Positions 12,264 through 18,428 of a DNA stretch of 64,000 nucleotides are shown piece by piece; within the stretch, counting starts at the first letter, position 1, and every line of letters starts with the position of its first letter. Origin of the DNA: Erysipelotrichaceae bacterium (GTDB taxonomy: Bacteria > Bacillota_I > Bacilli_A > Erysipelotrichales > Erysipelotrichaceae). The DNA lies in NCBI GenBank assembly GCA_017405785.1, contig JAFQZR010000005.1, positions 1-64,000 on the forward strand, given 5' to 3'. The position numbers and the translations under genes are program-made. The notes beneath the pieces are model-generated. The model saw only the letters and a program-made list of their open reading frames with translations. It was not told the origin of the DNA and ran no database searches.

Positions 12264-12318
12264 TGTAAGGTAAATTATCAGTTAAGGGAGTTTACATCAA
12301 GGGGAAGGAGTGAGGAAA

Positions 12319-13002
12319 ATGGCAGGCTTGCAGACAACAGTATTCAGCATACTGATCATCACTGCGGTCATCATTGTTTTCCTCATTTTTATTAACGGAA
12401 AACTGAAGAAATTTGACCCGATGGATGAGCCTAAGGGCATTGTCCTGTTAATGATGGTGGCTGTTCAGACGATTGACAACATGGTCAAAGAGAAGACCAA
12501 CGAAAAGGTTGCCAGAACGCTGACACCGTACATGTTGACAGTGGCACTGTACCTGTTTATGGCTAACATTTCGGGTCTGTTTGCTTTGGAAACACCGACT
12601 TCCAACTATTCAGTAACTCTGGTACTGGCAGCTATTACCTGCATACTCATTGAGGTATATTCAGCCAAGGCCAGAGGAACCAAGAGCTACATAAAGACCT
12701 GGTTTGAACCGTTTGCGCCGTTTGTAGTTCTGAATCTCTTCAGCAAGATGTCCACCTTGCTGTCGCTGTCACTGCGTCTGTTTGGTAACATTCTTTCCGG
12801 AGGTATCCTGATGTCGGTCATTTACCAGATGCTGGCATCTGTATCAAAGATGATACCTTTTATGGGAGAATTCAACATCCTTGGCGTTGTGGTAGCTCCG
12901 GTCCTGCATTTCTATTTCGACCTGTTCTCAGGTGCAATGCAGGCATTCATCTTCATTACATTAACAATTTCATTCATCGGTAAGGAATTACCGAAAGAAT
13001 AA
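12319..13002 (+). CDS. atpB: F-type ATP synthase subunit a
   Basis: A 227-residue polytopic Fo subunit that forms the ion half-channels beside the c-ring. Arg153 in SLSLRLFGN is the essential arginine of helix 4. The C-terminal segments around FYFDLFSGAMQAFIF fit the last two helices. ATG at 12319 has AAGGAG eight bases upstream; a GTG at 12310 overlaps that site and is unlikely. It is the first gene of atpB-E-F-HA-G-D-C. Given the two-carboxylate c subunit, this a subunit may conduct Na+, but nothing in this sequence alone settles that. Confidence 0.95.
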   Translation: MAGLQTTVFSILIITAVIIVFLIFINGKLKKFDPMDEPKGIVLLMMVAVQTIDNMVKEKTNEKVARTLTPYMLTVALYLFMANISGLFALETPTSNYSVTLVLAAITCILIEVYSAKARGTKSYIKTWFEPFAPFVVLNLFSKMSTLLSLSLRLFGNILSGGILMSVIYQMLASVSKMIPFMGEFNILGVVVAPVLHFYFDLFSGAMQAFIFITLTISFIGKELPKE

Positions 13003-13014
13003 GGGAGGAAAAAT

Positions 13015-13245
13015 ATGGAAAAAGCATTAATCGCATTTGCAGCTACACTTTGTGTTCTCGGTGGCTGTATCACCGGTCTGATGGAAGGCAAGATCGCCAT
13101 CAAGGCAGTTGAATCAATCGGAAAGAATCCGGATGCTGCTGACAAGGTCCAGTCCATGGCCATCATCGGTGCTGCCATTTCAGAAACATGCGCTATTTAC
13201 TGTCTGCTTGTTGCATTCCTGATCATCTTCATTTTAGGAGCATAA
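13015..13245 (+). CDS. atpE: F-type ATP synthase subunit c with two membrane glutamates
   Basis: A 76-residue hairpin of two helices that builds the rotor ring. The expected ion-binding Glu57 lies in helix 2 (ISETCAIY). Helix 1 carries a second acid, Glu24, in GLMEGKIAIKAVES. Counting back from KAVES, Glu24 occupies the place of Gln32 in Na+-type Ilyobacter c and of Glu32 in the two-carboxylate Na+ c-ring of Fusobacterium nucleatum, and the 24-57 spacing (33 residues) is the same. Thr58 sits where Ser66 binds Na+, but Cys59 replaces Thr67. This points to Na+ coupling (inference). GGGAGGAAAAAT precedes the ATG. Confidence 0.95.
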   Translation: MEKALIAFAATLCVLGGCITGLMEGKIAIKAVESIGKNPDAADKVQSMAIIGAAISETCAIYCLLVAFLIIFILGA

Positions 13246-13246
13246 G

Positions 13247-13756
13247 ATGCAGATTGTAGACATTCTGAACCTGCTGGTACCAAATGTCTGGACATCAATT
13301 ACACAGCTCTGCGCTACAGCCGTGCTGTTTTTTGCGCTTTACAGGCTGGCATACAAACCGGTAAGAAAAATACTGGATACCAGAAGTGAATATGAGCAGA
13401 ACAAGCTGGCAGAAGCTGATGCTCTGAAAGCAGAAAATGAAGCACTGAGAAAACAGCTTGAGGATGAGCTGGCCAAAGCTGACGTTACAGCCAGGGAAAC
13501 CATTGAAAAAGCCCGGACTGAAGGCAGACGGCTTAAGGAAAGCCTCATATCCGAAGGCAAGGAAAGAAAAGAGCAGTTACTGGCAGATGCCCAGGCTGAT
13601 ATTGACCTTCAGAGAAGCAAGATGCTTGATGAGGTTCAGCGGGATATCGTTGACGCAACCATTTCAGCAACCGAAAAGCTGCTGAATGAAAAACTTGATG
13701 AAGCCGCAGACATGCGGATCATTGATGACTTTATTAAGGAAGTAACTAAGAGATGA
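13247..13756 (+). CDS. atpF: F-type ATP synthase subunit b
   Basis: A 169-residue peripheral-stalk protein. One N-terminal membrane helix (about residues 12-32) is followed by YKPVRKILD and a long, highly charged coiled coil to residue 150, the standard b layout and length. It starts two bases after atpE, with TAGGAG inside the end of atpE. Its last four bases overlap the next gene (ATGA). It links the membrane sector to the delta part of the fused delta-alpha protein, which is the next reading frame. Confidence 0.94.
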
Positions 13757-15790
13757 GTTTAAATACCAAACGTTTTGCCCAGGCCCTGATCGACATGTCC
13801 TACAGTGAAAACGGGGAAGACATTTACTTCAATACGTTAAGAAAAGTAAATGATCTTTTGAACAGGGACAGCGAATTAAGGCGGTTTATCGATGACTATG
13901 ATAATTCTCCTGAGGAAAAGGCTGAAAAGCTGGGGGAAACTTTTGGTAGTGATCAAGACAGACGAGTTATTAATGCATTTTTCCAATTTAACAGTACGAT
14001 CGGCCGCAGACAGACCGAACTGGCACTGCTCCATGATTTCATGGAACTTACCTACGCCAATAACGGCATCTTCTTCGGACAGCTGTATTCAGCCAGACCT
14101 CTGGATAAGAAGACCATCCGCAAGATCGAAGGTGCCATTTCCTATACCATGGAACACAGAGTTGCTCTGGAGAACATTCCGGATGAGAAACTGCTGGGTG
14201 GTGTCAAGGTTGTTGTCGGTGAGTATGTCTGGGACGGAAGTTATAAAACCAAATTAGAAAACTTAAGAGAAGACCTGCTTAAGAAAGAGGACATGAATAT
14301 CGCTGATGCGATGAAAGAGGCTGATCTCAGCAAGGTGTCCGTTAAAAATGGCGATACGGTTGGTCATATCACCATGGTAGCTGACGGTATCATCAAAGTA
14401 TCAGGTCTTAACAAGGCCATGTCAGGCGAACTGCTGCAGATAGGTGAGACCAGTGCGATGGTCATGAACCTGGAAGAGGGCAGCATCGGTGCCGTTGTCT
14501 TAGGCAATGAAAAGAAGATCATTGAAGGCATGGAAGTTCAGGCAACCGGCAGAATCGTTGAGGTTCCGGTAGGTGATGCCTTACTGGGCAGAGTCGTTGA
14601 TGCCTTGGGCAGACCGATTGACGGCAACGGTGCCATCAAGCCTGATACCTATTATCCAATCGAAAGAAAAGCACCGGGTGTCATTGAGCGTCAGTCCGTA
14701 AATGAACCTCTGGAAACCGGCCTGAAGGTTATCGACTCCATGATTCCTATCGGCAAGGGCCAAAGAGAGCTCATTATCGGTGACAGACAGACCGGTAAGA
14801 CAGCCATCGCCATCGACACCATTCTTAACCAGAGAGGTAAGAATGTTAAGTGTGTTTACGTAGCCATCGGTCAGAAGAACTCAACCGTGGCTCAGATAGT
14901 GGAAAAACTGAGACAGAACGATGCTCTGAGATATACGACCATCGTCTGTTCCGGTGCTTCCGAACTCGCTTCATTACAGTATATTGCACCGTATGCCGGA
15001 TGTGCCATCGGTGAGTACTGGATGGAGAAGGGCGAAGACGTGCTGATCGTCTATGATGACTTAAGCAAGCATGCCATTGCCTACAGAACACTGTCACTGC
15101 TGTTAAGGAGACCTCCGGGAAGAGAAGCTTATCCGGGTGACGTCTTCTATCTGCATTCACGTTTGCTGGAAAGAAGCGCCAAGCTGTCAGAAGCCAGAGG
15201 AGGAGGCAGCTTAACGGCTTTGCCAATTGTTGAAACGCTGGCAGGCGACATCAGTGCCTACATTCCGACAAATGTCATTTCCATTACGGACGGTCAGATC
15301 TTCTTACAGACCGAACTGTTTAACAGCGGCTTCAGACCGGCAGTTGACAGCGGCTTATCTGTCAGCCGTGTCGGCAGCGCTGCTCAGAGCAAGGCCATGA
15401 AAAAGGTTTCCGGTTCTCTTAAGCTCGATCTGGCCCAGTACCAGGAAGTTCTGGATTTCGCTCAGTTCGGCAGTGACCTGGATGCTTCAACCCAGAAGAC
15501 CATCAATCACGGCAAGCGTTTAATGGCTTTACTGAAACAGCCACAGTACTCACCAATGACGACAGTTGATCAGGTATTACTGTTACTGGCAGCTCAGAGA
15601 GGCTATCTGGAAAACATTGAACCTGACAGGATCCGGGCTTTTGAGAGAATGATGCTTGACCATCTGCATACTTCCCACACTCTGCTGGTAAAACAGCTCA
15701 GTGACGGACTGGTAATGGATAACGATCTGGCTGATGCACTGGAAGATGCCATCTATGAGGCTAACATAGCTTTTACTACGGGTGAACAGA

Positions 15791-15810
<20 letters not shown>
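13753..15810 (+). CDS. Fused F-type ATP synthase delta-alpha subunit
   Basis: One uninterrupted 685-codon frame. Residues 1-180 are a complete delta subunit (the start [16 protein letters not shown]; the end [17 protein letters not shown], as in delta C-termini). Residues 181-685 are a full-length alpha subunit with GDRQTGKT at 343-350, the [15 protein letters not shown] block, and SVSRVG with the arginine finger. No linker exists: alpha's expected first Met is residue 181 (14293). Its first 20 residues diverge from the usual delta-binding helix of alpha. One delta normally serves three alphas, so the fusion poses a stoichiometry problem. AAAGAGG two bases before 14293 could allow some internal initiation. 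A sequencing error changing a stop to GAG remains possible. Confidence 0.85.
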
Positions 15811-18029
<2,219 letters not shown>

Positions 18030-18030
<1 letters not shown>

Positions 18031-18428
18031 TGTTTACACTGGAACTCATTACCTATAAGGGCGTATACAGAAGGATAACGGCTGCCAGCATCAACCTGCC
18101 GACGCCAGATGGCAGAAGAGGCGTACTGCCTAATCACATGCCGATCATGATGCCGGTATCCATCGGTGTTGTCTCTGTGTTACAGGATGGCAGAAGAAAA
18201 AAATACACCGTTTCTGAGGGTATATTCTACTTTGAAAACAATAAGGCCACATTATTGGCCGACAATATCGAGGATGTCGATACCATCGACCTTAAGAGAG
18301 CCAGGGAAGCTGAAGCCAGAGCCCGTGAACAGCTGCTCAACAGTGTCAAGGACAGCGATATCCACAGAGCTGAAGTGGCATTAATGAAGGCCATCAACCG
18401 CATCAATGCCAAGGAAAATGATGAATAA
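18030..18428 (+). CDS. atpC: F-type ATP synthase subunit epsilon
   Basis: A 132-residue subunit with the N-terminal beta-sandwich (LELITYKGVYRRITAASINLPTPDGRRGVLPNHMP) that contacts gamma and the c-ring, and a C-terminal two-helix hairpin (ALKRAREAEARAREQL-like, here DLKRAREAEARAREQL) that can inhibit hydrolysis. The start overlaps the atpD stop. An intrinsic terminator follows directly, so it closes the operon. The family normally has LPGxxGxxGxLPxH; here the first glycine loop reads PDGRRGVLPNH, within known variation. Confidence 0.94.

What the first reader, a model, noticed from the sequence alone, without database searches (positions are those of the whole stretch)
13015..13245. Subunit c carries two membrane carboxylates (Glu24 and Glu57), a Na+-rotor signature
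Gapless comparison through KAVES and the second helix places Glu24 at the Gln32 position of Na+-type c subunits and Glu57 at Glu65, with 33 residues between them. The same Glu32/Glu65 pair defines the two-carboxylate Na+ c-ring of Fusobacterium nucleatum (recalled from the literature). Thr58 keeps the Ser66-type ligand, but Cys59 replaces Thr67, which makes the ion choice less certain.
Basis: partly seen in the sequence, partly recalled or inferred. Interest (0 to 1): 0.65.

Follow-up and report, generated by a model that had tools for sequence, protein, structure and literature searches.

The report
Two-glutamate ion site in ATP-synthase rotor
The rotor protein of this gut bacterium's ATP synthase really does carry two membrane glutamates, as in a known sodium-driven rotor, but proton-driven rotors carry the same pair, so sodium use is likely here without being shown; the same gene cluster also holds an apparently undescribed fusion of two other subunits.

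Summary
ORF 13015-13245 is AtpE (76 aa), and Glu24, Glu57, Thr58, Cys59 and Tyr62 align without gaps to positions 32, 65, 66, 67 and 70 of the Fusobacterium nucleatum and Ilyobacter c-rings. The pair is not chance: in 131 distinct relatives position 24 is only Glu (78) or Gln (53), and Glu57, Thr58 and Tyr62 never vary. "Na+-rotor signature" is too strong. The paper behind the comparison says the second Glu stays protonated, acts like Gln and also occurs in H+-driven enzymes. A Glu/Glu/Thr/Met/Tyr ring predicted to be Na+-type was measured as H+-selective. Cys59 breaks the published Na+ rule for position 67. For Na+: the family profile matches the three solved Na+ F-type c-rings best, and the genome has an oxaloacetate decarboxylase Na+ pump while Rnf, Nqr, Ech and complex I were not found. 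My estimate: Na+ 55%, H+ 30%, mixed 15%. A new member of a known kind, in an Erysipelotrichaceae bacterium. More surprising is a neighbouring gene: AtpH (delta) and AtpA (alpha) form one 685-aa reading frame in at least 36 related loci; the ten such genomes searched hold no separate copy of either. That lies outside the finding.

The parts
13015..13245 (+). atpE, F-type ATP synthase subunit c (76 aa)
   Evidence: ORF and translation; Pfam PF00137 52.3 bits against a cut-off of 24; sole rotor gene found in the genome
13084..13086 (+). Glu24 codon (position 32 of I. tartaricus / F. nucleatum)
   Evidence: Gapless alignment to 3zk1/1yce; only Glu or Gln in 131 relatives
13090..13092 (+). Lys26 codon, two residues after Glu24 in helix 1
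   Evidence: K/R at this position in 33 of 78 Glu24 sequences and 0 of 53 Gln24 sequences; few independent origins
13183..13185 (+). Glu57 codon, conserved ion-binding carboxylate (position 65)
   Evidence: Glu in all 131 relatives
13186..13191 (+). Thr58-Cys59 codons (positions 66, 67)
   Evidence: Thr58 invariant; position 59 is C 69, V 25, T 23, A 10, S 4
13198..13200 (+). Tyr62 codon (position 70)
   Evidence: Invariant in 131 relatives
12310..13002 (+). atpB, subunit a (230 aa); Arg156 in LSLRLFGN
   Evidence: PF00119 145.6 bits; Arg located
13247..13756 (+). atpF, subunit b (169 aa)
   Evidence: PF00430 71.7 bits
13753..15810 (+). atpH-atpA fusion: delta (OSCP) joined in frame to alpha, 685 aa
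   Evidence: PF00213 and PF02874/PF00006/PF00306 domains in one ORF; same ORF in relatives
15782..16630 (+). atpG, gamma subunit
   Evidence: ORF in operon position and recognisable sequence
16642..18030 (+). atpD, beta subunit
   Evidence: ORF; used for the family tree
18030..18428 (+). atpC, epsilon subunit
   Evidence: ORF in operon position

Best explanation
AtpE is an ordinary F-type c subunit whose ion site is the Gln/Glu32 kind, in its two-carboxylate form. Glu57 is the carboxylate that binds and releases the travelling ion. Glu24 most likely stays protonated and works as Gln does in relatives: one more oxygen ligand and a hydrogen-bond donor to Glu57. Thr58 and the backbone carbonyl of Ile55 complete the cage, Tyr62 locks Glu57, and Cys59 takes the place of the Thr67 that holds a bound water. 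The travelling ion is more likely Na+ than H+, with the gradient at least partly set by the oxaloacetate decarboxylase Na+ pump, but the sequence cannot settle it. Shown: residues, register, conservation, presence of the pump genes. Inferred: protonation of Glu24, geometry, ion.
For: Register and residues. Invariance of Glu57/Thr58/Tyr62 and the Glu-or-Gln restriction at 24 in 131 relatives, with at least 7 changes between Glu and Gln on the AtpD tree, as expected if the two are equivalent. The family profile ranks the solved Na+ F-type c-rings of A. woodii, F. nucleatum and I. tartaricus above every H+ ring. The genome encodes PEP carboxykinase, OadA (over the NF008985 cut-off), a biotin carrier protein and OadB (over the TIGR01109 cut-off) in one cluster, and no Rnf/Nqr, NADHdh/Ech or Proton_antipo_M subunit was found. 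Constitutive protonation of the second Glu: calculation, crystal structure and transport data in PMC3692424.
Against: Cys59: in Mulkidjanian et al. 2008 all predicted Na+ enzymes have Ser, Thr, Gln or Arg there. The B. pseudomallei ring with Glu/Glu/Thr/Met/Tyr is H+-selective. Order-level relatives have Val at that position with the same other ligands. The genome also has a membrane pyrophosphatase whose GNTVKAITKG motif looks like the K+-independent class, which I recall as H+-pumping. Association of Glu24 or Thr/Ser59 with Rnf or OadB could not be tested with power.
Confidence: 0.57

Rival explanations
1. H+-coupled rotor that has kept most of an ancestral Na+ site: loss of the Thr67 hydroxyl weakens the bound water and Na+ affinity, so the site carries two protons, one of them transported.
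For: Position-67 rule; H+-selective B. pseudomallei ring with nearly the same ligand set; second Glu found in H+-driven rings; position 59 varies freely among C, V, T, A, S with at least 14 changes.
Against: Thr58, Tyr62 and Glu/Gln24 are invariant or tightly restricted over the whole family, which H+ binding alone would not obviously require; no respiratory H+ pump found; profile affinity to Na+ rings.
Confidence: 0.3
2. Dual-ion rotor: H+ and Na+ compete at comparable occupancy under physiological conditions, as reported for Methanosarcina acetivorans.
For: Intermediate ligand set; that enzyme also has two predicted glutamates and couples to both ions (PMC3692424); the genome has a Na+ pump and a membrane pyrophosphatase.
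Against: No direct test; F. nucleatum with the same two Glu moves Na+ only.
Confidence: 0.13
3. Glu24 is not a mere Gln substitute: in this clade it is partnered by Lys26 in the same helix, so it could be ionised and charge-balanced, giving a site with altered electrostatics.
For: K/R26 occurs in 33 of 78 Glu24 sequences and 0 of 53 Gln24 sequences, in the fusion clade and in L159, L173 and L196.
Against: Residues i and i+2 lie on opposite sides of a helix, so Lys26 probably points to the ring lumen; only about four origins, which chance allows; some clade members have Leu or Ser there.
Confidence: 0.1

Closest known systems
Fusobacterium nucleatum c11 ring (PDB 3ZK1/3ZK2), two-carboxylate Na+ rotor
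   Same: Glu at 32 and 65, hydroxyl residue at 66, Tyr at 70, gapless register
   Different: Thr instead of Ser at 66, Cys instead of Thr at 67, Ile instead of Val at 63; glycine motif degraded (Ile19, Met23); Lys26; ion untested
Acetobacterium woodii c subunits (PDB 4BEM), Na+ rotor
   Same: Best sequence match in PDB; Glu-Thr at 65-66
   Different: Gln at 32 in A. woodii; Thr or Ser at 67; two kinds of c subunit in the ring there, a single c gene here
Burkholderia pseudomallei N-type ring
   Same: Glu/Glu/Thr/x/Tyr ligand set with a non-Thr residue at 67
   Different: Measured as H+-selective; N-type operon order with atpQ and atpR, not the order here
Holdemania and other Erysipelotrichaceae c subunits
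   Same: Same Glu24/Glu57/Thr58/Cys59/Tyr62 set (H. filiformis, H. massiliensis)
   Different: Phe at 26; delta and alpha are separate genes

Membership tests
F-type ATP synthase subunit c (PF00137) | Family profile over its cut-off, helical hairpin, membrane Glu/Asp in helix 2, gene between atpB and atpF | tested here: met
   52.3 bits against 24; hairpin model pLDDT 92; Glu57 aligned to the ion carboxylate; operon order
Two-carboxylate c-ring (F. nucleatum type) | Glu at positions 32 and 65 in one ion site | tested here: met
   Sequence and structural register
Two-carboxylate c-ring (F. nucleatum type) | Second Glu constitutively protonated and not co-transported | not testable with these tools
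   Shown for F. nucleatum in PMC3692424; needs structure or titration here
Na+-type c subunit | Gln/Glu32, Glu65, Ser/Thr66 and Tyr70 present | tested here: met
   Glu24, Glu57, Thr58, Tyr62
Na+-type c subunit | Ser/Thr/Gln/Arg at position 67 (Mulkidjanian et al. 2008) | tested here: not met
   Cys59, so it is not filed as a Na+ c subunit on sequence
Na+-type c subunit | Na+ protects against DCCD/NCD-4; Na+-stimulated ATPase | not testable with these tools
   Bench assay
N-type ATPase | Operon starting with atpD-atpC, with atpQ and atpR, lacking atpH | tested here: not met
   Order is a, c, b, delta-alpha, gamma, beta, epsilon, with an OSCP domain
Oxaloacetate decarboxylase Na+ pump (genome context) | OadA, biotin carrier and OadB encoded together | tested here: met
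   OadA and OadB over NCBIfam cut-offs; cluster in L072/L074

The most novel reading that the evidence does not exclude
The rotor belongs to an F-type ATP synthase built differently from known ones: delta and alpha are one polypeptide in the only operon, so each F1 head would carry three delta domains, or would need cleavage or an internal start to make free alpha. That enzyme would run, probably on Na+ from oxaloacetate decarboxylation, on a two-glutamate ring in which Lys26 sits beside Glu24 and Cys replaces Thr67.
Probability: 0.3. Interest if true: 0.75.

Novelty: new member of a known kind. Interest (0 to 1): 0.38.

Why it matters
For the rotor: the family offers a natural series (Gln/Glu at 32; Thr, Ser, Cys, Ala, Val at 67, with the other ligands fixed) for testing which residue decides between Na+ and H+, a question on which sequence rules have already failed once. 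If Na+ coupling holds, these rumen and gut Erysipelotrichaceae may link oxaloacetate decarboxylation to ATP synthesis without Rnf. The neighbouring delta-alpha fusion matters separately, because it challenges the fixed 3:1 ratio of alpha to delta.

Tried and rejected
Association of Glu24 or of Thr/Ser59 with Rnf or OadB: only 2 to 4 supported independent pairs, no power. Na+ riboswitch or other Rfam family in the window, the OAD locus or the pyrophosphatase locus: none at gathering threshold. AlphaFold model of the delta-alpha fusion: mean pLDDT 58, uninformative on the junction. Structural ranking of the c model: Z is similar for Na+ and H+ rings and for unrelated helical hairpins, so fold says nothing about the ion. 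Internal start of alpha at ATG 14293: rejected as a conserved mechanism, since several relatives lack an ATG there. Assembly error as the cause of the fusion: rejected, same frame in many independent genomes. Ion specificity of Pseudobutyrivibrio ATP synthases was looked up, but the paper held says nothing about subunit c. A first pass on the alpha/delta split used a wrong frame and was redone. Papers not held: PMC4640650, PMC2881411.

Full report
WHAT IS THERE. The 231 bases at 13015-13245 (+) encode a 76-residue protein over the Pfam cut-off for ATP-synt_C. It is the second gene of an atp operon: atpB 12310-13002, atpE, atpF 13247-13756, an atpH-atpA fusion 13753-15810, atpG, atpD, atpC. The genome, 1.96 Mb and 97% complete, has no other c or K subunit, so this is its only rotary ATPase as far as that search reaches. 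Named relatives place it in the Erysipelotrichaceae, mostly ruminant-gut metagenome assemblies.

REGISTER. phmmer against PDB sequences aligns residues 7-72 to 15-80 of both the F. nucleatum (3zk1) and I. tartaricus (1yce) c subunits without gaps. A profile of 26 relatives gives the same offset. An AlphaFold2 hairpin (pLDDT 92) aligns structurally over its whole length to 3zk1 residues 9-84. Glu24 is therefore position 32, Ile55 is 63, Glu57 is 65, Thr58 is 66, Cys59 is 67 and Tyr62 is 70.

CONSERVATION. I read atpE in the relatives found by whole-genome search and in 80 named loci: 131 distinct sequences. Position 24 is Glu in 78 and Gln in 53 and never anything else; 57, 58 and 62 are invariant; 59 is C 69, V 25, T 23, A 10, S 4. 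On an AtpD tree of 80 genomes position 24 changes at least 7 times and position 59 at least 14. Glu and Gln replacing each other and nothing else is what the equivalence stated by Schulz et al. predicts. It also means that Glu24 marks no separate ion specificity.

WHAT THE LITERATURE SAYS. In F. nucleatum both Glu coordinate Na+, the second Glu stays protonated through the cycle and protons are not co-transported; Thr67 and the Ala64 carbonyl hold the bound water (PMC3692424). The same paper expects the motif to work alike in H+-driven S. pneumoniae and M. tuberculosis enzymes. Two carboxylates therefore do not by themselves indicate Na+. Mulkidjanian et al. 2008 require Ser, Thr, Gln or Arg at position 67 for Na+ and find aliphatic residues in H+ enzymes (PMC2359735); Cys is neither. 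The nearest measured case to this ligand set with a non-Thr residue at 67, the B. pseudomallei N-type ring, was predicted to be Na+-type and measured as H+-selective (PMC5376962).

GENOME CONTEXT. The genome carries ATP-dependent PEP carboxykinase, OadA, a biotin carrier, biotin ligase and OadB in one cluster: a Na+-translocating oxaloacetate decarboxylase by family assignment. NQR2/RnfD/RnfE, NADHdh (complex I/Ech) and Proton_antipo_M families were not found. A membrane pyrophosphatase is present; its motif GNTVKAITKG has Lys where K+-dependent enzymes have Ala (from memory), so it is probably K+-independent and H+-pumping. All nine genomes of the genus lack Rnf, and seven of the nine have OadB; the two without it are 75% and 83% complete. 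A Na+ gradient is thus plausible, while H+ circulation is not excluded.

JUDGEMENT ON THE ION. For Na+: ligand set apart from 67, profile affinity to Na+ rings, Na+ pump. Against: Cys59, the B. pseudomallei precedent, Val at 59 in order-level relatives. I put Na+ at 55%, H+ at 30%, both at 15%; this is judgement, not measurement.

DEPARTURES FROM THE MODEL RINGS. The glycine motif is degraded (Ile19 and Met23 at the Gly27 and Gly31 positions); changes in that motif alter ring size in I. tartaricus (PMC3692424), so c11 cannot be assumed. Lys26, two residues from Glu24, is unusual for mid-membrane; Lys or Arg there occurs only with Glu24 (33 of 78 against 0 of 53), but the number of independent origins is small and the side chain probably faces the lumen.

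A FUSION NEXT DOOR. AtpH and AtpA are a single ORF in all nine genomes of the genus and in one further genus, and in 36 named loci, including some of the same genomes. Nine of these genomes (eight of the genus and G033) were searched together with two outside controls and none of the nine has a separate alpha or OSCP gene. Most other relatives have them apart. In a sample of 245 genomes of the phylum every listed OSCP match lay in an open frame of 295 aa or less; the list was cut short and did not reach the weakest matches. No conserved start codon exists at the junction. The only natural delta fusion I found in the held literature is delta with b in Mycobacterium and Gordonia (PMC5709465). 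An F1 head has three alpha and one delta, so this enzyme must either carry three delta domains or make free alpha by cleavage or a non-conserved internal start. This deserves its own investigation. (Where the summary says ten genomes searched, read nine with the fusion.)

Noticed in passing
window 13753-15810 (+); L126-L158, L161, L162, L164: AtpH (delta/OSCP) fused in frame to AtpA (alpha) in one ~685-aa ORF, in at least 36 Erysipelotrichaceae loci; nine such genomes were searched and hold no separate copy of either; no conserved internal start; conflicts with the 3:1 alpha:delta ratio.
   Followed up: partly
window 13090-13092; L126-L159, L173, L196: Lys or Arg at position 26, two residues after Glu24 inside helix 1, occurs only together with Glu24 and never with Gln24.
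   Followed up: partly
L074 11074-16535 (-): pckA-oadA-biotin carrier-birA-oadB cluster: Na+-pumping oxaloacetate decarboxylase apparently fed by PEP carboxykinase, in a genus without Rnf.
   Followed up: partly
L019 1501-1716 and about 1750-1965: Genome G016 has two tandem, nearly identical atpE copies about 33 bases apart.
   Followed up: no
L122, L123, L124: Genomes G009, G029 and G019 have a second ATPase operon with a 580-589-aa alpha-like ORF and a divergent c subunit; type not identified.
   Followed up: no
L083 / L159, delta ORF: In G023, a Rnf-less relative with Lys26, the delta ORF next to alpha is only 130 aa and matches just the C-terminal part of delta: truncated or frameshifted.
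   Followed up: no
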